Made by a program: the position numbers and the translations under genes. The notes beneath the pieces are model-generated. The model did no database searches, had not been told where the DNA came from, and saw only the letters and a list, made by a program, of their open reading frames with translations. 23,262 nucleotides of DNA from Herpomyces periplanetae (lineage: Eukaryota; Ascomycota; Laboulbeniomycetes; Herpomycetales; Herpomycetaceae). Of the stretch, positions 3,001 to 23,262 are shown piece after piece; position 1 is the first letter of the stretch; each line of letters begins with the position of its first letter. Location of the stretch: contig WMKJ01000153.1 of NCBI GenBank assembly GCA_009733715.1, positions 1 to 23,262 on the forward strand. Direction: 5' to 3'.

Positions 3001-4000
3001 AAACGCAGCTTTTCTTAGATAATAATAAGCCGCGACTACGGGGTCTCTCGTGAAAATAGGATACAATAAAAATAATGGCAAATGCGGTAATATTGACAAG
3101 ACCGGATTGGTACAATGGAAGAAGGTCGACAAAGAAAGCAAAAAAAAAATCTTTCTGCAACAATATGATACCCTTTTGTTTCATGCAAAACAAATAAAAA
3201 TGAATGAGCATATAACGCTGGTAATGGCTTTGATGTTGCGCTGCTCCTTTAGTAATACTATGCTTCCTGTCAGTTGCAAGTTCCCACAAGTTGTTTGGGA
3301 TTGGCCCTTTTTCTCGACTGCTTTATATTTTGTGAAATTATTTTAATTCGTCGATATTAAGTTTTTTCTGCTTTTCCAATGTCGGTTCTTTATATCTTTC
3401 GTATTTTACCAGAAATTAACTGCTGATCCCTTCACTTTTTTGTTATATTGTTTCTATTGTGTGTTAGTAGCTTATATTTTAGTCAGAAATTGAAGTGTAT
3501 TTTTCCGACCCAGTATGATAACGGCTATGTTTGTTTCAAGGCATAAAATTGTCTCGAATTTCCATGTATGAAGAAATTTTAGGTTACTATAAATGGCCAT
3601 AAATTTATAAATTCAAGCTTTTTACATAATCTACTTCTCGTCAAAAATTTTGGTTTTATTCTAACCTTGTGTACTGGTTTGCACAGCGGTACCAACATAC
3701 ATTATTTATTAATTTTTTCAGTGGTAAATTCTAAAGCTCATCGTAAATCTGTCCAAGACGACTAACTGAGTTTCTCAACATTTGTTTAAAATGCTGAGTG
3801 TCTTTGGCTCATGAGACTTGCAATTTTCACGCGGTAGGATCTGTAAGCAGAGTCTCTAGTGAGTACAAAAGTTATAAAAATAGGGTATTTATTTGGTAAT
3901 TGAGGAAATTGTGGTATTTTAATTAACTTCGGTCACCATTAAGTTGTTTAGTCGATTTTTTTGTTAGTAGTAACAGTAAATTCATATATACCGATCTAGT
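1..4000. other. AT-rich spacer, no supported gene
   Basis: Mostly AT-rich DNA, T-rich on the + strand around 840-1400 and 3300-3700. Open frames of 60-115 codons occur but lack start context, splice signals and recognisable motifs. At 2086-2274 (+) a short stretch, ICQEGHFMAHC, has the look of a zinc-knuckle segment, as found in gag-type proteins of LTR elements. It is too short to name a family, and if real it is a worn fossil. A partly open + frame follows at 2516-3020, again unassigned. A short TA run sits near 2637-2647. Nothing here supports a functional gene. Confidence 0.5.
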
Positions 4001-6950
4001 ATACTATATGCCGTTATTACGAATATAACTACCAGAGAGGAACAACGAAAGGGGGGGATAGCTGGATAGGAGGAGCTGCTCTTTATTTTGCCGTCAGCTT
4101 TTGTCTGGAAGTTTTTACTTCAGTCTCAAGGAGATTGTCCACTGCGTTATACTTTAAAGTGGTATTGTGCGAATGGTCGAAGTTACCCGTATGTGAAAAA
4201 TACAGTCATGATGTTGACACATGACCCTTCGCCTTGTAGCAGGGTAGAAGGCGAATAAACGGATTGCAACTGAGTAGAAAACAACCCAACACAAGCGAGG
4301 GAGCAAACAAGTGAATGTTGTAATAAAACATAGACACGGAAAAATTATCTACTTTTAAGGCGAAACTTAAGCAACACGAACTGAGCAAGAAGAATAATAA
4401 ACAAGCGAGTAACTATAGGATGGAACCACAAAGTACTGTCAACTTCTAATTGTTTATGTCAAGTTGCGCAACAAACAAATTCTGCAGGAGTAGTCATCTG
4501 GGCCGTCCAGTGTGCGTCAGGTTCGGATTAAAATCCGTTGCGACCTTCCAATTGGTACCACACGACTGTCAGCGAAAATTCGGGGATAACCGTAAGTCTG
4601 TGCTCAAATATTTCAGATGGAAAACTTTGAGTGATGCAGTGCTTGTCTGACAGTCACAATGACCATTGTTTAATCCAGCAAAAAATGATATCCGTGAGGA
4701 ATAGCAGGTGAGCAAGACCAGCTTTCAAACATCTGGAGAGGCACATACGCCTCCCATGCTTGTTATAAAGTAGATATCCAAGGCGGGACTCGTTATGGAA
4801 CGTCCTAGAAATAGGCTTGAACTGGTACAAGCCTAATGACGTTGGTGAGAGCAGAGTCTGGTCGTAATCAAAGCAATAGCATCTACATGCTGATATTGGT
4901 AATGTCGTACCTATCGCACTCAAAATTGCAATACCCTTGTGGCAGTGAAGGGGTTGAGAGATCCACTTTTGAATGTAAAAACATAGGTCGAGTTACGTGT
5001 AAAATCATGCAAATAATTGGTAACACCAATAAAGACGGTATCTACAATGACTGAAAAAAAATTCACAGAATTGACACGACAAGATACAAAACAAAACATT
5101 GCCACTTGAATAATAAAAGGACGGCGTTAAACTAAAATTATAAGATGTTGGTAAAACCTCCGAAATAACTATTAACCCAGAAAGTTGTCTGATTGTCGCT
5201 GAATTCTGCGGATTAATACCTTGACATATATGGAGAATGTCTGCAAAATTTTAGTACGATTGAACTCTGAAAGATTACAGAAAATGGAGTTTTATTAGCT
5301 TTTGTATAGATATCAACGCAGGGACACGGGGGCATAACGCTTATACTCGCAGAGGAAGATCCTTTGAGACATCGTCATTATCTTAAAATCATTCATATGA
5401 CGAGTATATAAGGACCTCCAAGTCTGCCATACTCCTGGCCCAACAGACGATAAATTTCGGTTTGTATCTTATACTATGTAACCTCGTTGCTTAGATTTTC
5501 CGGATAGTCCTTTAACAAATTAATAGCATTTAATGACTCAGGCTTTGTTCCTCCCGGTCTGGAATTGTGGCTGTGCAACAGTAACTTCATTCCATATTGT
5601 CACTCGCATGTTTTCACTGGTGTTCTTCAGTATTGCTGTAGTGCTAGAAGTACTTGTGCTGGACCTTCCCTGTAGCCCTATTCTTACGTCGCTGGGCCCG
5701 GGGACTACTTGGCGGTAGTCTTATACGTATGACTATCGTCAACACCCCATGAATACAAACTTAGAGATGAAACATACAGAAATTTCTTGTGAGCTGCAGC
5801 CAGAGTCCACGCAGTTATATTTCATGATACTCTGAATCACAACAGAAACTTTATGCTTAAACTTCCTAGTATTGCCAAAGAGGGCGTCGTCATCTCATAT
5901 TTTTACAAGCAAAACGGCTAAAAAATCCTGAAATTGTAAACTTTTCCTCTAAAATGATTCAGGATCCAGGACACTAACGGTGGTACGGGATGGCTTGGTG
6001 TTAGAATCTAGTACAGTTCGCTCTATGCTTACAAACACATGAACACAAGCTACATAGCCCACAATTCAATACGTTCCACAGGCATAATTTAGTGCTACGC
6101 TGCATTTGCCGGAGTTTTTAATACATATATTCAATCAACAAAGGCTGAAATTTTACTCAGAGTGAAATTTGATTGAATAATATTAATTTAATCTGGAGGG
6201 ACGCCACCTATAACCGTTAAAAAGTACCATAAGCCATTGTCCTCCGAGAGTGGGGAGTAAAGACCAAAAATCGCCTTTCAATATTCTTTAATGGCGGTTG
6301 AATCTTCATTTGAAAACATAATGATATGCCAACTGAACCGATAGCCCTACCGAAGAGGTGCAATATATTACGACACTAGAGCACTGGAAAAAATCCCGCG
6401 ACTCACTCATCTTGGATTTTCTTCGAGGTATATGCTAGACTTACATGCTTTGTAGCACGTACGATTTAATAAGCTGAATATATAAGTGATGGTGCAAGTA
6501 TGTAGAAAATACAATAAATGAACTATTGAATTATTAAGTGCGAGCTTCACAGATCACACACGGATGACTAATTTTTCCCTTTCCGTCCCCCAGAATCTTG
6601 TGGGAGGAGCATCCCTTCCGTCAGCCGAAGTTTGTTTGCACTTAATAGCGACCAGGTCCATCCGTTTGTTTCGGCGTCTTTTCTTGCCGTTAGGCGTATC
6701 GTTCATTGGGACCCAACCTGTTTTCGCACCACAGTGACTAGTCCCGTCCTGTGGCAGCCTCTATATATTGGATGGCATACACTAGCACCAATTCCCTTAA
6801 TGAGCATGGCTATCCAGCTCCTACGTCATTGGGGCGTCTGTATGGGATATTTCCTCGGTTCCCCACATTACAGTATATTCCAAACCTTTAGGCGTCTCCA
6901 GCTTTTTACACGGGCTTCTTTTTGAGCCCATTACTCGAAATTTCCGTTCT
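4000..6950. other. GC-richer block, probably decayed sequence of unknown origin
   Basis: This block is visibly richer in G+C than the flanks (for example 5641-5700 is roughly half G+C, against about a quarter in the first few hundred bases). It contains short open stretches on both strands. The most protein-like is a minus-strand open run without a start at 5720-5538 (60 codons, Ser/Thr-rich centre, with VPGPSDVRIGLQGR and MRVTIWNEVTVAQ). It overlaps an antisense + frame at 5533-5718. A second minus-strand run near 6550-6720 carries NGKKRRRNKRMDL. No conserved domain, terminal repeat or target-site duplication was recognised. An old, worn insertion is the simplest reading, but the family is unknown. 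Confidence 0.35.
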
Positions 6951-7559
6951 ATATATGATTCATCAAAGGAACCGAAGTGTATGTTTTAGATTCGAAAAAT
7001 ATCTGGTTGTTTTCCAGTTATGATAATCTTATTTCGAGCGAAGACTTTCCAAGAAAATCAACTGACTAAAGTAATTTTGGTACCTTTCTTCTCCAAATTG
7101 GAAGGAAAAAACGATGCTAATAATTATTTAATACAAATACACACAAAAGCTAGAATTTGTATCTTTTCCGTGTCGGCTATTACAGTTTCACTAGTAAAAT
7201 TGTATGTTTTATGCAAACGGGTACTCCTTTGAGGTAATTAGTTGAGATGATGTTAATGGCTGGATTCTTCTGTTGACGTTACCAGGTTGGTCCTAGGGAG
7301 ACTTTGAAATTTGGCTTCTCTAAAGCCCACAAATGCTAACTCTTCCCACCAAGGTTTTGAAAAAACAGAGGGTGCAAATACGATTTTCCACGTTAAGTGC
7401 TATTTTGTTCTATTGGTCTTTTCATATCAGTACATCTTCACAGCCTATTTTTGCCCCATTACGTATCATGTTCTCTTGTAGTATCAGCCCCAGTGTCGAC
7501 AATTAGACTGTGATTCCTTACCCATGGCTAACGTTGACCATAAGAATTCACCAATATGA
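6951..7559. other. spacer, no supported gene
   Basis: Contains a 70-codon + frame from ATG 7020 (7020-7232) without a signal peptide or family motifs. It is followed by C/T-rich sequence with several AG dinucleotides. I found no splice combination giving a longer protein. Confidence 0.4.
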
Positions 7560-7918
7560 GGCATTTGTGCCTTAGGACGAAGGCAAGCTTTGGCTTTCAT
7601 GGAGTATTGATGATAATCTGAGGCAATAGCTAGGTGTTTATATGGAGAAAGCTAATGAAATTGATTGAGTGGTACGCATCTTTATGGCCTCAATGTGTTG
7701 TCTAGCATACTAAAATTATTCAGAGTTAGACTTCTGGATGATTAATATCTGATTGAAGGACGAGTGCTTTGAGACTAATGAAGATGATCCTTTGAATTTT
7801 GATGCTCTTGAGAAGCTCAGACTACACCCCTTAGCACGTGGAGCTTTCAACACATTGAATATATGATGAGTTGCCCCGAGTATTTAAGAATCCTTTGTTC
7901 TTGATTCCAAGACCGTAA
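7560..7918 (+). pseudogene. protein-like relic, family unknown
   Basis: One + frame reads like protein broken by several stops: EGKLWLSWSIDDNLR, LGVYMEKANEID, CFETNEDDPLNFDALEKLR and LHPLARGAFNTLNI. A different frame then continues with DELPRVFKNPLFLIPRP, directly followed by a GTAAGT donor-like site at 7916. The amino-acid make-up is balanced, unlike the low-complexity frames around it, which suggests former coding sequence. I cannot name the family, and cannot tell a host gene fragment from part of a mobile element. Given the low information, this could still be chance. Confidence 0.3.
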
Positions 7919-10900
7919 GTCATGTTGTATGTACTATGAAGTAACGTTTTATTTTTGATTTTATATATTTATCCTATTTAATATATTATTACATACATGA
8001 GTGTTTTGTTTACACATTTATGGAAATAAAATGTAGAAGTAGTTTAATACAGGTGATTGTTGGCAGGTATGACTTCATAATGAAAATCCATTTTGTGGAA
8101 ATGGAGTTTAAAGTTAGCGACATACAAGGGATGTAAAATTAAAGTATTTTGTGTAAACATAGGTTGAAGCTATTCACTTGCTTCACGTTTTTCCACGAAT
8201 GGAGTCGCCGGTAGACTTTTGAGGGAATTAGGTTATCTTTTTCAATACATGAAGGGATCTGTTAGTTTAGTATTAACTGGTTACGATTATAATATATTGC
8301 AACATTTTGCACCCGTTATACACTATTTATAGTCAATGTATAATCGTTATTTTGAAGAGTTTTGAGTAAGATTGGATGATCGTGTGATTGATGGTGTACA
8401 CATTTTGTGATGCAAATTTTAAGCGTTTTCTTAAGGTTGAATATTTGGCCATGAATATTTTAATGTTGTAACTGAGTAATGCCTGGATTTATGCATCTAA
8501 TGCGAGTTTCACCTGCCCATTATCGGGAAATATACGGTAAATACATCATGTAATAATGCCAGAAATCTTGAGGACCCAGAGTGAATTTGGATACATTAAA
8601 TATGTATTTAAGTCTGTGTGTTGGAAAAAAATAAAACAATATTAAACTCAATGGTGCCGTAATAGGGAGGGCTTATGTTAGGCAACTAATGAGTAAAAAA
8701 AACGGAATTCAATTCAATTATGCATTTAAAAAACCCATGAAGATAAAGGATACTCGATCCATATCCTACTAAATTTTTGGTACGTTGAAGAAATTATTTA
8801 ATTCTTTAAATTTAATATATGTGGATGCGCTCAAATAAAAATGATCTTAATGACTTGAGTTGTTACAAATATGAAAAATGTATAGACATAAACGTAGAAC
8901 TGTAAAATTTTATTTTTCTAGAAGCTGAACTTAAAGTTTAATTTATCACGACTCTATACACATGTGAAAGGACCGCTTGTAGGCATGTGCAAATTATAAC
9001 TGTACAAACCGAAGCCAAATCCATTTTATTTGGCAGAAAATGTGGTACTTGGTCAATTAGATAATTCAATATTCTATACCGTTTTTACAAACTCAGATCA
9101 GCTTGAAGACATTTTATATTATGGAGGGACAAAAGCCTATTTTCCAATACAAGACGAGAATAATTTTCAACATTGGAGTATAATCAATATATAATTGTAC
9201 ATTTCTAGTGGTGTAAAGATACATTCAGGATATACGGTATTTGAATTTGTAGTAGCAAATCAATATTGAATGGATAATTAATTGAAAAATTCGTAATCGA
9301 CGGAGCTAATTCTGCATCATTTAACAAGGAAAAAGTATACCAGTTTTGAAACGTCAGTTGTATTTGATACGAATAGAAGTATACATGTTTGCATAAATTT
9401 TATAAATACATTTTAATCAAAATAGTAAATGATGGACATGTCATAAGAATGAGCTATGGAATGAAACATGTACATGTTAAAATACGAGATTGTTTCCAGT
9501 AAATTTTGATTTTTCAACATGGACGAAGGGCGACCATTATTTTTTAGTGGGAGAATTTATTCTACTGTTACTCATAGTGTTTTAGTTTTGATAAAAGGAT
9601 CAGCAAAGTTACTTTTGGATTTTTGCCCTAACTTAACCATATTTTTCCCATTAGTCCCCATATGCATTAGCCATTTGTTCACAGGGAAGCAACGTAACCA
9701 CTACAAGTTGATAAGGTGAGTTAAATTATCGGGCATTTGTTTACAGAAGACAGTAACGTAAATTATGCTTCGTTTCACAATACTTAAACCAAGGATAAGT
9801 GAATCAGTGGGAACCTGCCATGAGTAGATGCAAGTAAAGTTTTGCTGCCAGATTAGAAAATCTGGAATTGTATGATGGTTAGTTTTGAGGTAGTTAAGAT
9901 TGAGTGAATACTTAGTTGGCCAGTTCAGTTGCGATAATGATGGTGATTTTGCTACAGTTAAGAAAGGTTTTTCCATTTGAGAGCGGTTAGTTGTTAAAGG
10001 TGTAAATTCTAATCTCTGTAGAACAGACAACAGCGTAGTGGCCAGGAGTAGAGTGTGGTATTACTTGAATTTTACGGGAAAATGCACGTGAAAAATATGA
10101 TATGTGAGTTTAGGGCGATTCAAATGGGAAGAATTCTGTTTAATAAATGGTGGGAGTATAAGGATGATTAAAGTGACAAGGTCAATTGTAATATGAAAAG
10201 CAGTACAGGATTAACCTTGCGGAATTACAGAATCAGAGTGTTTGCATGATCTAGTGAACATAGGAAGGACATTTACGTCAAAAAAAGTGAAGTATAAAAT
10301 GCAAACCGTTTAGCATTTTCCGAAGTCGGAAGCGCTGCATTAATTTAAGGAACGTAACGTACAGTTAAGTTAATGAGGCTGTGAATGATGCATATAATGT
10401 GAAGATGGATTTAGAATGGGCTAAGGTACTAACATGTGTTACTGTAGATTTGGCACATAAGTATCAAGATTGTGATTAGGGACTTCAGATAGAGTGGACT
10501 GCTCTTGAGGGTCAATTTTACCGCTAAATTGGCTTAGTTTCAATATTAGTCTGCTAGATGAAGGAAGCATAGTACCATTAAATCTTAATCAAGGCATTAC
10601 CAATGTATAACCAATTGAATAATTGAATCACGTAGAATATATATAGTTAAAGATAGTACGGAAAGTGTATAAATAATTCAAAATTACAGATTTATAAATG
10701 ATAATTTTAAGAGAGTATGATGATGATAAGTTAAGGTATACTACAGAGTTATATTAAAGAGAATAAGAATTGTCTAACGGGATTAAGCTATAGTTTGTTT
10801 AAATGCATAATTTAACCAATGCAATAAAAGGATATTTCAAATGTAAATGTTCAGTTGACGATTTTATGACAGAATCGCTAATTCATTGGTAGCAAATGGG

Positions 10901-12386
10901 TTACACGAAAATATGTATTATACATATGTTGAATTAACATGACGATATTTTAACGGTAGCTCATGCGACAATTGCGCATTGATTTGGAGGGTAAGATTCT
11001 GAATAAGGGTTCACATATGGCGTTCCAGATGATCGGCATAGTTCAAGAATAAAGTAATTGAAAGTTTAAGTAACGCGAAACTTGAATATTTGGTACATGA
11101 TAGGAAGTGAATTAGTGTGAAAGTGTTGGAATTAACGGAATTGTAGGTATGTATGAGCTTTCTACGAACATAGTGTTGAATAAGAAATATAAAGAATTTA
11201 TCAAAGATATTTATACAATGACTACTGGGGAAAAAATTAGTGGGGTAATTGAATGAAGGAGAATAAGAGTACGTAAAAACAGTACTGGACCAAAAATTAA
11301 ACATTTCAGACAGATTTAGAGGAAATTAGCGAATATGTGAAATTGAAGAACGTTGGAAAGTTTGATTTGTTGTTTATGTGTAAAGAAAAAGTGAAATAAT
11401 ATTATGAATGAATTAACAAAGTTCGATGAAATTGGTGAAATAGAAGAGAAGCATCAAAAGCAAGATTAATTTAGTGTCACATTAATTTCGCAGCACGGAC
11501 TCTGAAATCTGTCGAAAAAAAGTAACCAGAAGTGTAGTTGATAAGAGAATATCAACAAAACAATTTTATAATTTGATCGAATTATCTTTAGCCATCATAG
11601 GAATATGCATGGAGCATTAACTCACAGCGCTGAACGTAATAGTTAAGAAATAGTTCACTAACTCGATTAATTTGTAAAATGGGACAAACTGCGAAACGGT
11701 TTTCCCACGTTTCCATAATATGTATAAAAGGAATATTAGATTAACCTACTATTCAATGATCGCATATTAAAGGGTTTACACATGATAATTGGTCAATTGA
11801 TTAAAATATCGCGAAGTTTGGACTTGAAGACAGATGAACGGAAAATGGCTATAAAATGGTAATTAAGTGGTAAACATGATTCCCAAATAAGGGTTAACAT
11901 AGTTTCATTTAGAAGGTAATGCGGAAATAATGTCAAATTGGTGCTAAACAAATATTTGATAAGCGTGAACTTGAATATGAATTGATGTGTCGAATAGTGG
12001 TAAGTATATACTCGGAGATTTTCCAGAAATCGGAATCTTATTAAAAAATCCATTTTGGAATGCCTGGCGAAATGAGAATTTGTTCGGTTTGATGAATATA
12101 TAAATTGCATCATGTCATTGATGGAGTTTACGACACATATTTGAAAGTTCTTGGTTAACCAAGGTACAGATTAAATTTTATCTAGGCCAATTTGCGTACA
12201 CATCTATAACGAATTACCAAGTGGACAAACTTACGAATTATTCGATTTGAATAGTCTGCTTATGATAATTGATATTTTCCTGTATACATTTAACATACTC
12301 TTAATTAAGTGAAATTTACAGGCATTTCTCCCTCTGAATATTTTTCCACTTCAAGTTTCAAGAAGCGGACAAGTGATTCCGGTATC
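7919..12386. other. purine-biased spacer (G over C on + strand), no supported gene
   Basis: The + strand is markedly C-poor: 10141-10200 has 16 G and 2 C, and 11341-11400 has 14 G and 1 C. Minus-strand frames of about 100 codons (9701-10030, 11011-11304, 11793-12113) are rich in Phe, Leu, Ser and Tyr and look like a side effect of this bias. Short + strand runs look faintly protein-like (about 10375-10490, 11310-11390, 11405-11470, 11930-12045), but none is long or recognisable. A 66-codon + frame from ATG 9519 ends at a strong AAG|GTGAGT donor without a convincing next exon. Confidence 0.45.
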
Positions 12387-13086
12387 ATGAAATTATCAAT
12401 AATCTGGCTTGGAATATTAGCATCCTTGGTAAGATGCATGCAACCTTGGGAGAATATGTACAGTATAAAGTATAAACTAGCTCTATTACCCTTGTCAGAA
12501 TCGAACGAGGTTGAAGCAGTATATTTGAAAGTTCAGAGTAATGGATTGCTGTATGGATCAATAGGTTCGAATGAATTACCTCATGATGTGAGTGTTAGTT
12601 GAACATATTGATGAGTTTAAGCTTAAAGTTGAAATGACAGAAATATTTTTATAAATTTCAATCTACTCTAGCGGACTATTTACCTAAATATTCCACTAAT
12701 TCAAATTTATTTGGTGCTGATTTATCGGAAAACGGAGGGGTTGAAGCGTATGAAACACGATGTAAGTAATAAATACAAGGCATATTCAAGGACTAGGTTA
12801 ACTCGAGAAAAACCTATTAGACCTATACATAACTGGGCAGCGAGGATGGCTAAGATTTTTAAGCAGTGATTCAGAAGATAGTTGGGGAAAACCGATAACA
12901 GCATGCAAAATTCCACCCAGGTCTAAAATACTGCAATGCAATGGACAAACTGACTTCTTTGCGTGCCAACGCTCGAATAAAAGATTATACTTAGTGCGCA
13001 CGACGGAACTAGGAGAGAATTGTAAAGCGGTAAAAGTTTATCTTTACAATCACACCCCAACTATGACAGCAGGCCCATGTTTTTAA
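12387..13086 (+). CDS. small secreted protein, three exons (distant family member C)
   Basis: Predicted secreted protein of 195 aa. The exons are 12387-12587, 12641-12761 and 12821-13086. Intron 1 (53 nt) is GTGAGT to GACAG, phase 0. Intron 2 (59 nt) is GTAAGT to ATTAG with a GTTAAC branch-like site, phase 1. The joined frame stays open for 195 codons and ends TGT TTT TAA. ATG 12387 gives a short signal peptide (MKLSIIWLGILASLVRC). Mature landmarks are KYKLALLPL, VYLKVQSNGLLYGSIG, ADYLPKYS, GGVEAYETR, LYITGQRGWLRFL, then TACKIPP, LQCNGQTDFFACQ and NCKAVKVYLYN. Without splicing, exon 2 seems to end in a stop right after the donor, so the gene is easily missed. The intron order and phases match the two minus-strand secreted genes at 14.0-16.6 kb, and LYITGQRGWLRF aligns with EMVIDDKGFVSW across the same splice junction. 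Exact function is unknown. An in-frame GTG at 12309 exists but adds no sensible sequence. Confidence 0.85.
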
Positions 13087-14009
13087 TTACCCCAGCGGAA
13101 CATTCCGCAAATATTATTGTGCAAGTTCAATACGAATAAAATTGCGAAGAGGTTTAAAGATAAAAGTTATCAAAATATACACACGTACTAATTATTCACT
13201 AAAATAGCCATGTAAATAACACAAATTTAATCAAACTTTAATTCAAATTTTTGAACAATATGTTAATCAAGATGCGTGGGAAATGGTGATGGTGGTTGGG
13301 AGTAGAAAGAGAAAACCTAAATTGTGAATCGCACGGTAGTTCAAGAAACTAATAAGCAGGACATTGAGTAGGGTATAGTTGCAAAGGATTTACAAAAGTA
13401 GTGGATTAATCCAGAGTCGATTGGAATACTGGAAATATCCATGAGAGAAATGGGCAAATTGATACGCTAAAAAAATGAGTTAAGATATTGCAGTAATTCA
13501 AGTACAGTTGTATGCGAATGACGAATTAAGTATGAACATATGCACAAGAATAAGTTTAAGGAAAGATAATATTGACGGGTTTAGGAGATAAAGGAATGGT
13601 CAATTATTGATGCAAAACACTATAATAGGACAATGTTGACAGTAGTGTACACATGCAGGCATACAAAGCTCAAAACATAACAAGTTGCACAAGAAAATTC
13701 GACATTAGCATGTGGGAAAATCGAAGAGAGAGAACAACGCATAAATTGGGTCACGAAGAGCCATTCATATGCGCTGGTCTAACCAAGGTCATTTAGTTCA
13801 GTGGTGGATAGATGAAACTTTCATTTGGGCAGAAATATAGAAAAGTCGTGTCCAGCAACAAATTTGAACAAAAAGGCGTAGCAAAGTGGATCAAGTGCAC
13901 TCATGGAGTTTGTTAAATTTCACATATACGATTATGCAGATACATCTGAGTAAAAGTATAGGGAAATATATTAACTGAATGGGTTACCTTGCCGTATAAG
14001 CAACTTAAA
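13087..14009. other. convergent intergenic region
   Basis: Lies between the 3' ends of the + strand secreted gene and the minus-strand paralogue A. It is purine-rich on the + strand, with only short open runs (for example near 13490-13590 and 13810-13915). No terminator-like or coding element was recognised. Confidence 0.5.
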
Positions 14010-14835
14010 CTATCCGAAATAATGTTGGGGGAAGATTTGATTTCCGGCATCAGACACGTATAATGTAACTTCACGACATTCTGAATCTGACAACGTACAA
14101 TCTTCCAACTGAATACGATTAGTTGAAAGAGCAAATGTCCAATAATCTACAGGACAAGCGTATACTTTGCGATTATTAGTCGGCACAAGTTCTTCTTCGA
14201 ATACAATATGTTCGGGAGTTTTTCGAAAGAGGAAATCCGCTCCTCTCATATTGTTTACAACCGGTCTCCAGGATACAAAGCCTTTATCATCGATAACCAT
14301 TTCGACTACGTACAAGAAAATGTTAATGTTAAAAGGTAAGATGATAGAGGGAGATATTGGTGATAAAATTAATGAAAATTTTGGGCCAGGAAAAAGCTTA
14401 CCATTGCCGTGTACAAATGTTACATCTTGTATAGCGGTTTTATTACCGAAGTTAACATCATAGAAAAGTTTAGGAATATTTTTAACACGAAACTAAACGG
14501 ATTCAGAGTTAGTTTGACCAGATGGTAAAATAATTTTAAGAAACGGGAAAAATTCCCTCCGTCCAGAAAAATCTCAGTATAGTTATTATAGTTATAATCC
14601 ATTTTAAGAATCGAATGCGGATTTTTCAGGAAGAGAGGAAGAAAAAACTCACGTTGTTACGACGATAGACAAAGTAATGATTATTGTGACCATCGACAAC
14701 TTGACTGTTGGAAAATTCAGGATCATCGGCGACGGCAATTAAACGAAAAGTTGCCTGAGCGGTTAAGGTTAAAAAGGCCATTAACACTATCAGGAAATAA
14801 GGAAGCGTATACGATGGTATAGTTAATTGCATCAT
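14010..14835 (-). CDS. small secreted protein, three exons (paralogue A)
   Basis: Predicted secreted protein of 189 aa, from exons 14835-14653, 14492-14402 and 14305-14010. Intron 1 (160 nt) has donor GTGAGT, an ACTAAC branch site and acceptor TTTAG, phase 0. Intron 2 (96 nt) starts GTAAGC and ends CGTAG, phase 1. Translation starts at one of two adjacent ATGs (14835 or 14832), giving signal peptide MMQLTIPSYTLPYFLIVLMA followed by FLTLTAQA, with cleavage likely before TFRLIAV. Mature landmarks are SNSQVVDG, YFVYRRNN, IQDVTF, VIDDKGFVSW, then VYACPVDYWTFAL and two further Cys (EDC, SEC). Aligned with the 15824-16624 protein, the last 51 residues are nearly half identical and the rest diverges more, with both intron positions kept. 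It is convergent with the gene at 12387-13086. Function is unrecognised; small size, export and divergence fit a candidate effector or cell-wall protein. Confidence 0.85.
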
Positions 14836-15823
14836 GAACAAAATTTAACGTGTAAGTATGTATTCAAGTCTGCAAAATAAATATTTAAATTCTATTTTGA
14901 TTTGGTAGTAATTACACACTTTCAATAGATTAACAACCTGACAAAGGGATAATGAAAAATACCAGACCGGATATGGGTCATTTAACCTACAAAAGACAAT
15001 ATACTCATTCACAGTTTTCCCGTTTGACTAAATTGTGCTATGGAGACGTTAACTTATGAAATATTGTCAATGACATTTGCATATACAGATATATCTACGA
15101 AATAATCCCTCTAACAATGCCGAATCCATATCATTTGATTTCCACTTGAATACAAAAATTGCGCATACGGACCGCTTATCGACATGGCATAAATGATTAA
15201 TTTAGCCCCCATGCATAACAAATTGGCCGGATTACTGCAATTCAATTTGTAGAAAATGTTGACTCGGGAATTTCAAAGATTAACTTGTCCGATAAATGTC
15301 AACTTTGATGATTGTTTCATTTCGGTTGCCTATAAAATGATAATTTTACCACTTACATACTTTACATGCAAATTTATCATCTATACAAATTTTCGTTAAA
15401 CTGCGCAAGAGCGTAAGATTTGGTTTTAAAAACTTTCTATTTTTCATATTGCAAATTCTATACATTACTTCGTGTCAACTGAATGAATCAAATAAGTAGA
15501 CAGGAATAGTAACGTTTAGTTTACCAATTCAACAAGATGGTGTAAAATCGTGACAATACATATTCATATTTAAGAGTAGAATTTGAAGAACAAACCATGT
15601 AAGAAAGCCCCAAAGAAATCAATTTAACTTAACTTTGGCATATAACAATAACTGGGACTAAAATAATATGGTACACGAATGTTCATCCATGTGAAAAGAT
15701 AAACTCTCTATGAAGTAACAGAAAGTAAATGGGAGGGCAAAAAACGTTGGATATACGTCTAGGTAAATAGCTCATATAGATCTAAAAAGTTTGAAAGTTT
15801 GGTGTACTTAACTAGTAATTTCG
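14836..15823. other. intergenic region between the two paralogues
   Basis: This is the upstream region of paralogue A and the downstream region of paralogue B. It is AT-rich and G and C are about balanced (15001-15060 has 10 G and 11 C). I saw no open frame of note and no shared motif with the upstream region of paralogue B. Confidence 0.5.
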
Positions 15824-16624
15824 TTAAGCATAGTAATGAGATGGAAATGATTTATCACCAGTATCTTCCAAAACCAAATCAATTTTGTGGCATTCTTGAT
15901 CTTTCAGCTTACAATTTGTCAGTCGACTACGTCTAGTCGTTATAACATAAGTCCAATAATCCAGAGGACAAGCGTAGACATTTTTACGATGTCTTGACTT
16001 AAGAAATTTATAATTGTATTTTGGATTTGGACGCTTCACAAGAACTATTTCAACGTCTGATAAAGAATTACTCAGATCATGGAAATGTTTTACCACCAAT
16101 TCGCCACGTTGATTAAATGTAAGATGAGCTGGTAAATTGTAATAGGGAATTATCATGTTAGTATTGAGTATTTGTAAATGTACATACATGAATAGAAAAT
16201 GTTAACTTACTAGATGTATTAAATGCTGTTATATCTTGTATCATAGGAAATCTTTCATCATTGGTAGCAAAATTGAAATATCTTGGTACACTTTGAACAT
16301 GAAACTAAACCACACAAATTCCATTTTCAGCGTCAGCGAAATCTTTAAAACGTTTGTTGACTCCGGAAAGGATTTTTTCCCCATCAACCAACTATGAAAA
16401 ATGTTGAATTAATCACGTACATTGTCCTTACGATAAACATATAAGTTGTTACCTAGTCCGTTAACAACTTGTAAATTTTGAAATTGTGTATGATTTGAAA
16501 AGGCTAGCATGCGAAAGTACGCCGACACTCCGCTTGTCCAAAATAATAAGATTGACATTAGCCATGGTAATAACACCACTCTGAATCCTATTCCACGATT
16601 CTTTGACTCTATTGGATTTCCCAT
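15824..16624 (-). CDS. small secreted protein, three exons (paralogue B)
   Basis: Predicted secreted protein of 200 aa, built from exons 16624-16421, 16304-16211 and 16128-15824. Intron 1 (116 nt) starts GTACGT and ends TTTAG, phase 0. Intron 2 (82 nt) starts GTAAGT, carries a TACTAAC branch site and ends CCAG, phase 1. The start at 16624 is the only ATG giving an N-terminus with a hydrophobic core (VVLLPWLMSILLFWTSGVSA), a typical signal peptide cleaved just before YFRML. The mature protein has FQNLQVVNG, YVYRKDN, MIQDIT, and a C-terminal block VYACPLDYWT with NC and QEC following. Three cysteines are shared with the 14010-14835 protein. It lies 988 bp upstream of that paralogue on the same strand. 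Function is unknown. The pattern of beta-rich segments ending in an ACP...W...C block is reminiscent of fungal PhiA/IgE-binding-like cell-wall secreted proteins, but this is a weak resemblance. A host-directed effector role is possible and unproven. Confidence 0.85.
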
Positions 16625-17980
16625 TTTAACGCACTGTGTGCACAAACTTAAAAGGTCACCAAACCGCAATTTTGTAAAAAATTGACAATTAAACAAAGTA
16701 TACTTGTGTTTCCTTTGCCCTCCTGAGCAATCATCAAAGAAAATATTAATACCACTAGATTATTCCCACATTAAATATTTATTCGGACAAAAGTACTCGC
16801 TCTTTGCTAGACCGACTATTCATATCCGCCAATTGTCTCATGCAAAAATACACTTGGCCATCGCCATACATAATCGACCCTTGATTGTTTGATAATACAA
16901 ACATTTAGCATGTCAACTAGAACCTAAATAAAGGTCATGCTGGCCAATTTCCCCCAAATGATAATTTACTCTATACTCAATATTGCCGGAATCTCATTAT
17001 TGTACGTGTACTCACTCTGCAATTATAAAATCACAGAGCTATCCAAAGCGTAATTATACCCCATGATTTATTGAGTATAAAAATTTTAAGCCATCAATAC
17101 ACTTTAACATCCATCCATGATATTTACCCCGTAAATGCCAAATTATGCTGATAGATTATCTATGACTAGCCTAAAAGTATCTTCCAAGTACTTAATATAG
17201 AATGTAAAGCTAAACCTGCCACGCTCGGTTGATAATAAAATATTTGATAAAAATTATGCATCATAACTTAAAATACTACTCCAGATTTATCCACCATTAA
17301 ATATTAGTGTAAATTGTTCATTCCAATCGTCTTATTACATCTCACGATATTCTTGATTGTGCCCTCCCATGTTTATGTCTATGAAGCTTCTTCTGAAGCA
17401 ATTTTTTCCCGAAAAACTATGCAAATGGAAAATACGGCATAAACTTATCGCACAATAATCATAAAATGCCTTTTCCTGTAATAGTATGAACTCTCTTCAG
17501 GTACCAGAATTTTGTTCTCTCTTCGTTTTCCTCCGGGGAGAAGGGGAAGGGGAAAGGCTTTACCCAATATCTCAAGTAATTTCAAAATACCAAATCAATT
17601 GATTGCTGCTCATCATCACCTAATAAGCCTACTTTCACTTGCATTGAGTTGCCATTATAGTTATTCCTCACGTTCCCTTACGACAAAAAACAAAACCGTG
17701 CGCCAGAAAATCACACATCTCCCATTTCCACGCCACGGAAACTATTATACGATGAAGACCCTTTGAAAAATATTGCTTTAAAAATAAAATGCCTTAGTAG
17801 AAATTCTGTTTAATGCACTATATGCGTTATGCGCGCTAAGAAAATATTCATGGAATAAATAATTCTCATCTGTTAACAAACCAAGCCGGATTTGGTCCAG
17901 CGAACGCCCGTAATTTTGGCCATATAAAAATCAAGGAAATGAATTTTGCACGTTTAACTCCGCATCAAAAACTTACAAGA
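16625..17980. other. intergenic region between Scc2 3' end and paralogue B
   Basis: It holds the 3' flank of Scc2 and the upstream region of paralogue B. The + strand is C-rich over G (16741-16800: 12 C, 5 G; 16801-16860: 17 C, 8 G). Around 17510-17770 the sequence is less AT-rich and pyrimidine-biased, with an 84-codon + frame that begins at TTG and has no recognisable content. No gene is called. Confidence 0.5.
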
Positions 17981-20900
17981 CTAGCTTGCTCGTTTTTTCC
18001 CATTAGCTATACCATTGAATTTCCCCCGTTTATCCTGATGTCCAGGATTCCATGTCGAAGTAGAAAGACAATCGTATGAATCACCAGACCCGCTTTGACT
18101 ATTTCTTCGCTTTTTATGATTAACGTTAGCAGGCCAAGTTGGCAAAATCCCGCAAAACTTTCGCGCGGTGTTAATTCCCGAGTCATTTACTGTATCAAAT
18201 GTTTCATCATATACCCCACTATTACCACCACCAAATCCCAAAGCTAAACCTTCTATACCCCTGTCAAACCCTTTCTCATCTCCTGCTTCGTCATCAATCG
18301 TTAACAATCCAACCAAACTTTCGCACGCAAAAACCAGATTTCGAAGTAGCTCCTTCCCTTCGTCAATCTCTTTTTCCTCCACTGTTTTTAAGGCATCAAG
18401 TTCCCATGGTTCAATGACCCGTTCCTTCCACCGAGAATTTTTGGTTTTAACATCTTCAATACCCAAGAAAATATTAGCCAAATTAGTTACCCGATCTAGA
18501 TAATTATCGTGATTCACACCATGCATGCGTACTGCACTTGCTTTGGAGTTGGGCGCACCTTCTTTCCCATTCAGCCCTAAACCACCTCCTAGGCCTGATC
18601 CGACCCCGTTACAGTTCAATCCAACATTTTTACCCGTTATCCGCGATATATTGTACAGTTTTCGTAAATGGGACCTTGTTTCCCACACAATACAAAGTGA
18701 TGCGGCGGCTTCTGCTAAATTGTATAATCGACCAAGTTTAAGCTCACCGTTGCCACATTCCGTTTCATTATTGGTAATTTGAATTTCCCCCGCAAATCCA
18801 TCATCTTCCATATTAAATGCAATAAATTCATTCATTTTAAGAAACCTCTCTTGCCGTTTTTTATGAGCTTCTTCAAGTCCTGCTTTGTCCTGTCCAATTT
18901 GTTTGATAAATTCATACTTCTTCGTAACCTCTGTTTCAATCATATGAGCAACTGCTGCTCCTAATCGAACTACAAACCTTTCAAGTCCTTCCACCATTTC
19001 AATAACTTCATCTAATTTGGTGTATTCAAATAATCCCAAATTCTCCATTATAAACCTAACGTATCCTAATTGGACTATTTCTGTATTTCCAGCATCCCCA
19101 ATTTTTTCTTCGTTGCTGTTCATACTTGCTTTGCAACTGGAAATTAAATGATTGAGAAACCGTTTACGCATCTTCCCATTACCCGTTTTTAGTACCTCAA
19201 ATAACAGGCGCAATTTAGCAAAACATTGACGATTCGTATGCGTTGCATTATTATCTCCGTTCACTGTTCCCCCTACTCCATTTGTAAAAACTACACCCCG
19301 TGCATCTCGAATCGTGTCTCGCTGATATGTAAAAGCCAGTTTAACGGCTCGAATATATTCCTTTTCAATCATACTTTCATGCTTAGAATGCAGGCTACAA
19401 TGTTCCTTGTACGCTGTACTTGATATAATACTATTTGGCGAGGTTTCTAATGCAACTAGTGATGGTCCGTATTCCTTGGGATGCACCAACCCTTGTCGAC
19501 TAATGCTTGCTAAAAGTTGGCACGCCAAAATGGCCAATTCTTCCGTGGCTCCCAATGCTAAGCGCAGAAAATGATTCAAAAACTTTTGTGCTACACACGT
19601 AGACACTCCGTCAACTTCCGTAGCCGCTAATGATTTATCCATTCTAGTAGTTCCATTGGTCCCATTTCCACTACCTCCGTTACCACCACCATTACTACCA
19701 GCCGCTGGATCGTTAGTATTAATTCCCAGTACCGTCCCACTTTCCGATGATCGTTCCTCTGAAACAAAAAAATTTCGAAAGCATGTTAACACAATACTCT
19801 GAGTTTTAACCTCTTCCCCGTAGAATACCAGTTCGAAAGCAGTTCCAACGTCTGGTCGAAGAAATTGTTGCGGCCAAGCTTGACAAATCATGCCAACACA
19901 ATCCAGAGCTGTTTCACGCAATGCAATGGGCTGTTTCTGGCGCGTAAACGGAGTCAACATATCAATCACCAACCCGGCTACCGTTCGCCCTCTCCACGCT
20001 GGAAACCGTTCACGAAACACTTCAATATGTCCTTCAAAATTGCATGCTTTACAAAAATATCCAGCTATCATCATGTATCTTTTGACTCTATTCAGGGCAT
20101 TTTTATCCTTATTTTCAGTAAAATCATGTTGTTCGAAGCCGCTTATTCCCTTCAAAACAGATATAGTGAGGCGTATCAAGCGATCTGTGTTCTTGAGTAC
20201 GCCATCCAGAATCCACAAGCATGATGCAACTTCATTTAGTTCCATCTTACCAAGCTTTGATACACTGCTCAACAATGCATCTTGTATGCTCTTGAGAAAG
20301 GCATTCTGTAGTGATGACAACGTGGGTAAAACATGTCGAAATATCACAATAACAGAGCGATATATCAGTAAGTCATCTGTGTTTGATAAATTTTTAATGT
20401 AAGGTTCCAGCAATTCAAGTTGGTCAGCAACGAAAAGTCTGGGATTTGCTCGCGCAAATACCGTAAGAGTTTGCAATATATGTATCTGTGACACTGCACG
20501 ACCGTCACTAACTGTCAAGGCTTTATCATCAACAATCGCATCAAACAAAACGGCCACCATAGCTTTGCATAGGTCAAAATTATCCGCATAAAGACTACTT
20601 GACGTTGAATTTACTCGATTTCCGTTGACCCCACTACTGTGTCCCACATTCATACAAACACTGTGAGGAGATCCAATAGCATAAGCGGTTGACGAATTAT
20701 TTCCATTTCCCAGTGTGTGGTTACCGCCTGAATTACCGGTACTATTGTTCCTAATATCTTTAACAAGTAAACTTTGAAGTAAGCTATCGAGTAGTGATAA
20801 AACGCCTTCGCCTCTTTGTACTGTATTGATTAGTAGCAGGACCTGTTGGTGTAAAGCCAACTTAGACGAGAGTTCTGTATCCCATTCTTTCGTCGCATTT

Positions 20901-23262
20901 CCCGGATGATGGCTTCCAACTAAAAATGGTGTCATCCAGATTTCTTCCAGCATTTGCCTGGCCATTTCAGCAATTCCCTCGTCAGTATCACGAATTCGCA
21001 TTAACATGGCCTCAGCTACGGCAGCCTTTACGTCTGAGCTGGTATTTCGCAAATACGACTCTTTGAGCATTTTTAATGCCCTTCGCCTCACCATCACTGC
21101 TACATCACTTGATCGAGAAATTATTCGCTCAGTAACATCTTTGTCAAGTGAAGGCTTAATTATTAAACACTTGCCCAGTACTGCAAGTGCTGAGTCTCGT
21201 ACCATGGTTGATACATCGTTCAAACATCGGGCAATTTGATTTAACAAAAGACTTCCCCTTAGTATTCCGGTATCTTTCTCTAGTATAAGAAGTATGCTCT
21301 TTAAAGATCGACTCTTTAAGGAGGCCTGATCACTATTCAATAGTGAGAGTAACGTAGCAAATATCCTCTTTGAAGCTCGACAAAAGGGTAAACTTAGGGC
21401 AACCAAAGCGGATGCCAATCGGCCATACAAATCAGACGGAGGAGCGGCGTTTATCTTTCGGTGAATTGACGAAGAATTCAATAGCAAATTACGCACTTTG
21501 AGTACAATTCCTTTAGAGATAATATCAGCTGAATTGTCAGTTTTCCCGTCATCAGAGTCATCAATAGCTTGGGCTAAATTTTTGGCCCAAAAAACCACGT
21601 AATAGTCGTGAGCACTTTGAATTTGGACTTCATTGTTCTCATCATTTGATAGAAGATACTCTAATACAGTGCGATACGGACCGTCATTTGCAAACACTTC
21701 CGGTGGTACTTTAGCGGCAGACCTACTTTCATCAAGTAACATTTCGGATACATTGATCAAGCTTACAGCCATTGGTCCTAAATCACACGATCCTTGAACA
21801 GATCGTGTGAATGCACGGGCAGATGCTTTCAGATTTGCAATTCCCGAAGCGAGAACGCCCATAATATCCAAGGCCATAGTCTTCGCAGGGGTATGAGCTT
21901 TATCATTTTCAACTAAGCCGATCATCTGTGAAAGTAAACTACGCAATAGCAACTCAGAAGAAGGCCAGTCTGCCATGCCTAGTACGCTGATAAAATCTTC
22001 TGCGAATATATCTAGCAAATTTCGATATGGTGTATCGCCGGATTTAGTAGCGGTTAACGCACGCTGCACCATGAAGGAAACAACATAGTAAGCAGCTTGT
22101 TGAGCGCTAACCATGTAAGGTTTTGCTGCATCATCTAATTCAGTATGTAAAACTTTCATATTAAGATTCTTTGCAACAACCATGCCGGAATTAGCACCAT
22201 CACTAGTGAGACTTTGGGAGTTAGCATCAGTATGAGCAATAAACTCATCTATTTCATCATCTAATACATCTAGATCAGAGTGAGGGTTTGTGGTGTCGAG
22301 ATGATTTTGCGACTCCTTTACATCCGTTAACAACTTTGACTTGCGATGAGATGATAAATTAGATGAGCAATTCGGAAATTGAGTTGGAGAAGCAGCGATT
22401 TGAACGAGACGCATAAGCAATGCGCTAACCAATTGAATAGGTCTACCTTCAGCAAGGCGATACTGTCGCGCACTTTGACGTTGAACAGGAAGCTTTTCTA
22501 AACTGGTTAAAATTTCATCGAATATACCATTACGCTGAGCTGTGTAACGACAGAAGATTTGGGCTAATACATCCATGCCGACACGGCGAGTAGACTCGAA
22601 TTTTTGAACGCCCAAGACGGATTCTCTTTCGGTGTGAGCGTTTTCGACAAATATAAGACGCACACATAAATCTTCAATGGAACTGATCGCTGTATCGGCC
22701 AGATCAATACTGGTAATCAAATCGCCTAGCAATCGAAGTACACGAGTTGATATAGAAGAAACGCTAGTTAGTGCTTTACGCTGGGAAAGCATGAAAGGAA
22801 ATAGAGTGGAAGTGGAACCACAGCTCCGTAGGGCGACGGCAGGGACGAGCAGAGAATCGAAGCAATGTTTTAAGGAGGAAAGAATTGTGTACACGAGATC
22901 CTCAGAATAAAGGACTTTTTCTTCACGACCGGCACACATGATTCGTAATAATAATTTGCCAGATTGTAAACCAAGGGCAGCAAGGCGAACATGAATAAGC
23001 CATGCATGAGTGTCATGGTCTGACAGATCGGAAGGAAAAGTAAGGGAAAGAGATTCGACACAGTGAAGAGAATTTTCACAAATTTTTTGGATGCGTTGTA
23101 AACTATCGACGGTAATTTCATTGAAGAGTCCAGCAAGAATAACATTTTGGATGGCCTTTTCAAGCCTATTTTGAGTTTCAGGGAGTAATTGGGGAGGTGA
23201 AGTAAAGTCGCCATCAGCGGTTTCAGGAACGAACATTAAACCATTACCATCAGCCAATTGAC
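17981..23262 (-). CDS. SCC2: Scc2/Mis4/NIPBL-family cohesin loader, 5'-partial
   Basis: This is the HEAT-repeat subunit of the Scc2-Scc4 complex, which loads cohesin onto chromatin in the nucleus. The frame is open without intron for about 1,760 codons and is still open at the window edge. The first codon sometimes taken as a start (23257) is TTG, so the true ATG and the N-terminal Scc4-binding region lie outside. Residues counted from 23257: HEAT repeats at about 655-790 (for example IARCLNDVSTMVRDSALAVL) match the cohesin-loading-factor HEAT region. About 1215-1320 (KFLNHFLRLALGATEEL, then HPKEYGPSLVALETSP) matches the Scc2/Nipped-B C-terminal domain. A charged, coiled-coil-like stretch lies near 1440-1477. 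The tail is basic, with KKRR at about 1715 as a likely nuclear signal. Asn/Gly/Ser-rich inserts sit near 836-885, 1182-1206 and 1547-1567. It ends RAS-TAG. Family assignment is firm; the exact fungal orthologue was not checked by search. Confidence 0.95.
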   Translation of the reverse strand, partial: QLADGNGLMFVPETADGDFTSPPQLLPETQNRLEKAIQNVILAGLFNEITVDSLQRIQKICENSLHCVESLSLTFPSDLSDHDTHAWLIHVRLAALGLQSGKLLLRIMCAGREEKVLYSEDLVYTILSSLKHCFDSLLVPAVALRSCGSTSTLFPFMLSQRKALTSVSSISTRVLRLLGDLITSIDLADTAISSIEDLCVRLIFVENAHTERESVLGVQKFESTRRVGMDVLAQIFCRYTAQRNGIFDEILTSLEKLPVQRQSARQYRLAEGRPIQLVSALLMRLVQIAASPTQFPNCSSNLSSHRKSKLLTDVKESQNHLDTTNPHSDLDVLDDEIDEFIAHTDANSQSLTSDGANSGMVVAKNLNMKVLHTELDDAAKPYMVSAQQAAYYVVSFMVQRALTATKSGDTPYRNLLDIFAEDFISVLGMADWPSSELLLRSLLSQMIGLVENDKAHTPAKTMALDIMGVLASGIANLKASARAFTRSVQGSCDLGPMAVSLINVSEMLLDESRSAAKVPPEVFANDGPYRTVLEYLLSNDENNEVQIQSAHDYYVVFWAKNLAQAIDDSDDGKTDNSADIISKGIVLKVRNLLLNSSSIHRKINAAPPSDLYGRLASALVALSLPFCRASKRIFATLLSLLNSDQASLKSRSLKSILLILEKDTGILRGSLLLNQIARCLNDVSTMVRDSALAVLGKCLIIKPSLDKDVTERIISRSSDVAVMVRRRALKMLKESYLRNTSSDVKAAVAEAMLMRIRDTDEGIAEMARQMLEEIWMTPFLVGSHHPGNATKEWDTELSSKLALHQQVLLLINTVQRGEGVLSLLDSLLQSLLVKDIRNNSTGNSGGNHTLGNGNNSSTAYAIGSPHSVCMNVGHSSGVNGNRVNSTSSSLYADNFDLCKAMVAVLFDAIVDDKALTVSDGRAVSQIHILQTLTVFARANPRLFVADQLELLEPYIKNLSNTDDLLIYRSVIVIFRHVLPTLSSLQNAFLKSIQDALLSSVSKLGKMELNEVASCLWILDGVLKNTDRLIRLTISVLKGISGFEQHDFTENKDKNALNRVKRYMMIAGYFCKACNFEGHIEVFRERFPAWRGRTVAGLVIDMLTPFTRQKQPIALRETALDCVGMICQAWPQQFLRPDVGTAFELVFYGEEVKTQSIVLTCFRNFFVSEERSSESGTVLGINTNDPAAGSNGGGNGGSGNGTNGTTRMDKSLAATEVDGVSTCVAQKFLNHFLRLALGATEELAILACQLLASISRQGLVHPKEYGPSLVALETSPNSIISSTAYKEHCSLHSKHESMIEKEYIRAVKLAFTYQRDTIRDARGVVFTNGVGGTVNGDNNATHTNRQCFAKLRLLFEVLKTGNGKMRKRFLNHLISSCKASMNSNEEKIGDAGNTEIVQLGYVRFIMENLGLFEYTKLDEVIEMVEGLERFVVRLGAAVAHMIETEVTKKYEFIKQIGQDKAGLEEAHKKRQERFLKMNEFIAFNMEDDGFAGEIQITNNETECGNGELKLGRLYNLAEAAASLCIVWETRSHLRKLYNISRITGKNVGLNCNGVGSGLGGGLGLNGKEGAPNSKASAVRMHGVNHDNYLDRVTNLANIFLGIEDVKTKNSRWKERVIEPWELDALKTVEEKEIDEGKELLRNLVFACESLVGLLTIDDEAGDEKGFDRGIEGLALGFGGGNSGVYDETFDTVNDSGINTARKFCGILPTWPANVNHKKRRNSQSGSGDSYDCLSTSTWNPGHQDKRGKFNGIANGKKRAS

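What the first reader, a model, noticed from the sequence alone, without database searches (positions are those of the whole stretch)
12387..16624. Three secreted proteins share one gene architecture: phase-0 then phase-1 intron
The genes at 12387-13086 (+), 14010-14835 (-) and 15824-16624 (-) encode 195, 189 and 200 aa. Each has a signal-peptide exon of 61-68 codons ending in phase 0, a middle exon of 30-40 codons plus one base, and a long last exon. The second junction falls at the same spot relative to a conserved strand and glycine: EMVIDDKGFVSW, HLTFNQRGELVV and LYITGQRGWLRF. The + strand member is so diverged that sequence alone would hardly link it, but the shared intron phases do. This looks like an expanding, fast-evolving family of small secreted proteins that conventional gene finding may split or miss.
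Basis: partly seen in the sequence, partly recalled or inferred. Interest (0 to 1): 0.8.

Follow-up and report, generated by a model that had tools for sequence, protein, structure and literature searches.

The report
Three small secreted orphan protein genes
A filamentous fungus carries three neighbouring genes for small secreted proteins without known relatives; two are clearly duplicates and the third is probably a distant sister, which makes this a real but fairly ordinary new family of fungal secreted proteins.

Summary
All six junctions, the phases (0 then 1) and the lengths (195, 189, 200 aa) reproduce as model predictions. A scan with no phase rule finds exactly these three leader-bearing genes in the window, and none in 40 shuffles. 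B (14010-14835) and C (15824-16624) are certain tandem paralogues, 35% identical over 81 residues of the last exon. A (12387-13086) is linked only weakly: no signal in exons 1 and 2, the top 1-2% of shuffles in exon 3, and a shared Gly-8 and [FY]AC-x18-Cys. Shared phases alone are weak evidence. "Expanding" is not supported: in the 13.8 Mb assembly only B and C find each other. C's exon 3 and B's exons 2-3 have no relatives among 5.8 billion proteins; A was not searched there. The host is a Dothideomycete by its Scc2 gene. Best reading: extracellular, beta-rich, disulphide-braced orphan proteins. A's last exon weakly resembles the genome's PIR-type wall protein, though an unrelated Pfam model scored equally. 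The fold is unproven: models reached pLDDT 42-43 only.

The parts
12387..12587 (+). gene A exon 1: hydrophobic leader and first strands, 67 codons, ends phase 0
   Evidence: (hydrophobic core SIIWLGILASLV, codon score +6.6)
12641..12761 (+). gene A exon 2: 40 codons + 1 base
   Evidence: codon score +7.4 against -0.26 for the rival frame
12821..13086 (+). gene A exon 3: Gly at residue 8, FAC-x18-C-x18-C, stop at 13084-13086
   Evidence: its own codon score is flat, -1.8
14653..14835 (-). gene B exon 1: hydrophobic leader, 61 codons, ends phase 0
   Evidence: 39% identical to C exon 1 over its match
14402..14492 (-). gene B exon 2: 30 codons + 1 base
14306..14401 (-). gene B intron 2: 96 nt, in frame, no stop; retention would give 221 aa
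   Evidence: codon score -3.3
14010..14305 (-). gene B exon 3: Gly-8, YACPxDYW, YAC-x18-C-x6-C
16421..16624 (-). gene C exon 1: hydrophobic leader, 68 codons, ends phase 0
16211..16304 (-). gene C exon 2: 31 codons + 1 base
15824..16128 (-). gene C exon 3: Gly-8, YACPxDYW, YAC-x18-C-x6-C; TACTAAC-type branch site in the preceding intron
17981..23257 (-). neighbouring Scc2/Mis4/Nipped-B cohesin loader, uninterrupted 1758-codon frame reaching the window edge; used to place the organism
   Evidence: (PF12830 E 7.5e-50)

Best explanation
Three real genes in an AT-rich stretch beside Scc2 of a Dothideomycete fungus encode small secreted proteins. B and C arose by tandem duplication about 1.8 kb apart and then diverged almost to saturation (shown). 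A is probably an older, inverted sister (inferred, about 0.65). The leader sends each protein out of the cell (predicted from hydropathy). Outside, the last exon forms a beta-rich domain braced by a disulphide between the [FY]AC cysteine and the cysteine 19 residues on (inferred). The protein most likely works by binding a ligand at the fungal surface or in the host apoplast, in the manner of PIR-type wall domains and beta-trefoil candidate effectors (inferred, weak). Loop divergence on a fixed core would change its target.
For: Gene models unique in the window, 0 of 40 shuffles. B/C homology in exons 1 and 3, and less strongly in exon 2, and as DNA repeats at 1812-1814 nt spacing. [FY]AC-x18-C and Gly-8 in all three: 4 of 200,000 shuffles of A's exon 3 carry both, but the motif was chosen after looking. 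The broader pattern [FYW]xC-x16-19-C-x6-18-C occurs in A, B, C and the genome's PIR gene, and in 2 of 275 ORF pieces from other own-genome loci. Dothideomycete placement. [quoted passage not shown]
Confidence: 0.55

Rival explanations
1. Only B and C are a family. A is an unrelated small secreted gene that shares the (0,1) intron phases and a cysteine motif by chance.
For: No meaningful BLAST match of A's exon 3 with B or C; hhalign E 0.2; no signal in exons 1 and 2; a (0,0) model for A exists.
Against: Exon 3 profile and anchored scores are in the top 1-2% of shuffles, with exact Gly-8 and x18 spacing; adjacency; same size and exon plan.
Confidence: 0.3
2. All three descend from a PIR-type cell-wall lectin domain. 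A is the least changed and B/C are far-diverged offshoots that became free secreted proteins.
For: A exon 3 against PF22799 PIR1-like_C: E 0.11 and 0.13 over 24,736 models, below the curated cut-off. BLASTP with the genome's own PIR gene L012: E 0.001 for a single comparison; 8 of 3000 shuffles and 0 of 275 null pieces as good. Pir domains are predicted lectin-like beta-trefoils (PMC10483737 passages).
Against: An unrelated Pfam model, PF23578 DGKI, matches A's exon 3 equally well (E 0.11 and 0.10). B and C show no similarity to L012. L012 appears by eye to have a single intron just after the leader and none at A's second junction. A shows no PIR repeats.
Confidence: 0.2
3. They are RNase-like effectors of the RALPH kind, which also keep one intron position through extreme divergence and often carry a YxC motif.
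For: Shared intron position as the family signal and clustering, in several cases within 10 kb, are described for these effectors (PMC3582587 passages); YAC in B and C, FAC in A.
Against: No PF00545 match in the exon pieces scanned (A exon 2 and C exon 2 were not scanned) or in the assembly at E <= 10; YxC lies in the last exon rather than near the mature N-terminus; the organism is a Dothideomycete, not a powdery mildew.
Confidence: 0.05
4. The models are not genes: chance open frames in AT-rich DNA.
For: A's exon 3 has no codon-usage signal (-1.8); no database relatives of C exon 3 or B exons 2-3.
Against: 0 of 40 and 1 of 60 shuffles give such a model; B/C protein similarity; canonical splice signals.
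Confidence: 0.03

Closest known systems
Ecp32 family and other beta-trefoil candidate effectors of Dothideomycetes (Dothistroma septosporum, Fulvia fulva)
   Same: Same class of fungi, small secreted paralogous proteins with little sequence identity, few cysteines, one shared disulphide among several, some with two introns (passages of PMC9493481 and PMC11872807).
   Different: No sequence link was tested; the fold here is unknown; introns in Ecp32 vary between paralogues.
PIR cell-wall proteins (PF22799 PIR1-like_C; in this genome L012:1312-1833)
   Same: A's exon 3 weakly matches the domain; [FY]xC-x16-19-C-x6-18-C in all four.
   Different: Score below the Pfam cut-off and equalled by an unrelated model; no repeats seen; B/C show no similarity; intron plan differs.
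RALPH effectors of powdery mildews
   Same: Family recognised by conserved intron position despite eroded sequence; clustered genes; YxC motif (passages of PMC3582587).
   Different: No RNase T1 signature, one conserved intron there rather than two, different fungal class, very large expansion in Blumeria (passages of PMC9816061) and none found here.

Membership tests
RALPH (RNase-like) effectors | RNase N1/T1-type domain recognisable by profile or fold | tested here: not met
   No PF00545 hit in the exon pieces scanned (not A exon 2 or C exon 2) or in the own genome at E <= 10; fold not obtained, so the fold half is open
RALPH (RNase-like) effectors | YxC motif near the mature N-terminus | tested here: not met
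   The [FY]AC motif is at residues 46-53 of exon 3; the source paper reports some effectors with a more C-terminal YxC
PIR cell-wall proteins | C-terminal PIR1-like_C domain above the curated cut-off | tested here: not met
   A: 13.7 bits against a cut-off of 27.6; B and C: no match
PIR cell-wall proteins | internal PIR repeats | tested here: not met
   No tandem repeats in the window at score 50; none seen by eye in the exon translations
Ecp32 / beta-trefoil candidate effectors | predicted beta-trefoil fold | tested here: inconclusive
   AlphaFold2 with 2-3 rows on exon pieces gave mostly beta models of pLDDT 43.1 and 42.0; Foldseek gave nothing at E <= 0.001
Ecp32 / beta-trefoil candidate effectors | signal peptide and no known domain | tested here: inconclusive
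   Leaders judged by hydropathy only; no Pfam or NCBIfam match above cut-off in the pieces scanned
Ecp32 / beta-trefoil candidate effectors | sequence relationship to Ecp32 members | not tested
   No Ecp32 sequence was fetched
Ecp32 / beta-trefoil candidate effectors | apoplastic activity or expression in the host | not testable with these tools
   Needs RNA-seq and protein assays

The most novel reading that the evidence does not exclude
The locus catches a cell-wall protein domain turning into orphan secreted proteins. A still carries a faint PIR-type lectin signature, while B and C, next door with the same exon plan, have lost all of it. If so, shared intron phase plus one cysteine spacing would link effector-like orphans to an ancestral wall protein.
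Probability: 0.12. Interest if true: 0.6.

Novelty: new member of a known kind. Interest (0 to 1): 0.33.

Why it matters
Orphan secreted proteins are a main unknown in fungal host interaction, and gene structure is one of the few signals that outlives sequence similarity. This locus is a small, checkable case: three neighbours with one exon plan, two provably related and one at the edge of detection. It also shows how little weight intron phase carries without a sequence anchor.

Tried and rejected
RNase T1/RALPH reading, prompted by a strand-Gly motif that looked T1-like from recall: rejected by profile searches. More paralogues: queries with A exons 1 and 3, B exons 2-3 and C exons 1 and 3, and a degenerate DNA pattern for [FY]xCPxDYW (2 exact sites, in B and C; 35 sites at up to 2 mismatches against 37 in the reversed control). 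Of the 33 sites outside the two genes I read only the three with one mismatch; one holds a stop and none looks like the family by eye. Structure: two AlphaFold2 jobs failed in confidence, and the one fold search, on the second model, is meaningless at that confidence. PDB sequence searches with C and B exon 3 gave nothing below E 0.1. NCBIfam gave one weak bacterial match (C exon 1, E 0.022, 13.8 bits against a cut-off of 300). A plasmid DNA search and Rfam on the window were empty. Alternative gene models were enumerated and ranked. Naming the organism by 18S rRNA failed: the server was busy five times. Pfam on eight pieces over 2948-10060 found nothing. One literature search for intron phase in fungal effector families listed one paper, on a 5' UTR intron of Ave1-like genes.
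Full report
WHAT IS THERE. I call them A (12387-13086, +), B (14010-14835, -) and C (15824-16624, -). A and B converge; B and C lie head to tail. Each begins with a hydrophobic leader. The splice signals are ordinary for ascomycetes: GTGAGT, GTAAGT, GTACGT and GTAAGC donors, and CAG or TAG acceptors at all six introns. A TACTAAC site lies in C's intron 2 and a CTAAC site in B's intron 1 (sequence).

IS IT MORE THAN CHANCE? I scanned both strands of the window for any ATG with a hydrophobic leader and two well-scored introns giving 170-220 aa, without a phase rule. Exactly three models came out, A, B and C, each with phases (0,1); 40 Markov shuffles of window 1-17900 gave none. The limits were chosen knowing the genes, so the absence of false positives matters more than the exact threshold. 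With looser limits (score >= 10, >= 120 aa) the window gave five stop positions: the three, one antisense to Scc2, and a second model from B's own ATG with phases (0,2); 60 shuffles gave none. At score >= 8 and >= 150 aa, 60 shuffles gave one.

WEAK POINTS OF THE MODELS. A has a rival with the same splice score but phases (0,0) and 178 aa. A's exon 3 has no codon signal in any of the three forward frames. B's intron 2 is 96 nt, open and in frame; the codon score of that stretch is -3.3 and C has an intron in the same place.

IS A A SISTER? BLASTP and profile comparison of exon 3 do not see it. Against a B/C profile, 594, 494 and 16 of 1000 shuffles of A's exons 1, 2 and 3 score as well. An alignment anchored at the second junction is matched by 23 of 2000 shuffles. 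In exon 3 all three proteins have Gly at residue 8 and [FY]AC-x18-C, with the first cysteine of that motif at residue 48, 50 or 53. Of 200,000 shuffles of A's exon 3, 72 carry [FYW]AC-x18-C at about that place and 4 also Gly-8; I chose this motif after seeing the three sequences, so the figure flatters it. Against 275 ORF pieces of 70-110 residues from other own-genome loci, A's exon 3 matches B's (3 as good) but not C's (134 as good). The phases add little alone: (0,1) would be shared by perhaps one two-intron gene in eight (recalled phase frequencies), and by my hand count the distances from the first strand to the junctions differ by about 8 and 17 residues. Taking all together I put A's kinship at about 0.65, a judgement rather than a computed value.

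NOT AN EXPANDING FAMILY. The window is part of a 13.8 Mb, 220-contig assembly. Queries with A exons 1 and 3, B exons 2-3 and C exons 1 and 3 return only themselves and the B/C pair. The [FY]xCPxDYW codon pattern occurs exactly twice without mismatch, in B and C. The search works exon by exon and needs shared words, so very distant copies could be missed; A exon 2, B exon 1 and C exon 2 were not queried.

WHOSE GENOME. Residues 640-1450 of the adjacent Scc2/Mis4 frame (17981-23257) have 74 relatives at E <= 1e-10 among the 7989 candidates scored. The best named ones are Botryosphaeriales and other Dothideomycetes at about 50% identity, among them Aplosporella, Saccharata, Neofusicoccum, Diplodia and Phyllosticta. 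So the protein set holds such fungi, and the lack of any hit for C's exon 3 and B's exons 2-3 suggests orphans, though the queries were pieces, the method needs shared 5-residue words, and A was not searched. Exon-level searches found no GH28 and no RNase N1/T1, which may reflect a reduced genome, an incomplete assembly or split exons.

WHAT IT MAY DO. A's exon 3 gives a sub-threshold match to PIR1-like_C (E 0.11 over 24,736 models; 0.13); an unrelated model, DGKI, scores the same (0.11 and 0.10), so the E-value alone decides nothing. The assembly's single match above that family's cut-off, L012:1312-1833, aligns with A's exon 3 at BLASTP E 0.001 for one comparison; 8 of 3000 shuffles and 0 of 275 pieces do as well, while B and C show nothing. 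The broad pattern [FYW]xC-x16-19-C-x6-18-C is in A, B, C and L012 and in 2 of 275 null pieces. Pir domains are predicted lectin-like beta-trefoils (passages of PMC10483737), and Dothideomycetes have sequence-unrelated beta-trefoil candidate effectors with one shared disulphide (passages of PMC11872807 and PMC9493481). I therefore favour an extracellular, beta-rich, disulphide-braced binding protein. The secretion signal is predicted, the disulphide and fold are inferred, and the ligand is unknown. Two AlphaFold2 attempts on exon pieces were mostly beta but reached only pLDDT 43.1 and 42.0, so they prove nothing.

PRECEDENT. That intron position can reveal eroded kinship among secreted proteins is proposed for the RALPH effectors (passages of PMC3582587, and of PMC6759760). 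The locus is a new case of a known kind, not a new phenomenon.

Noticed in passing
window 16308-16391 (-): Inside C's intron 1 lies a 28-codon open stretch with a coding-like codon score (7.5), ending in the TAG that forms the acceptor; unexplained, possibly chance.
   Followed up: partly
window 14146-14460 (+): A 105-codon open frame antisense to B's exons has a codon score as high as B itself (14.2 against 14.0); probably a shadow of the coding strand.
   Followed up: no
L012:1312-1833 (-): The one gene found above the PIR1-like_C cut-off in the assembly ends in an acidic Asp/Glu run and a cysteine cluster, which struck me as an unusual tail for a PIR-type protein.
   Followed up: no
window 4000-7000: GC rises to 0.39-0.42 without a long frame or a Pfam match (eight pieces tested over 2948-10060); an intron-rich gene or an old element may lie there.
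   Followed up: partly
G000 (own assembly): Exon-level searches found no GH28 pectinase and no RNase N1/T1, fitting a reduced or host-dependent Dothideomycete, if the assembly is complete.
   Followed up: partly
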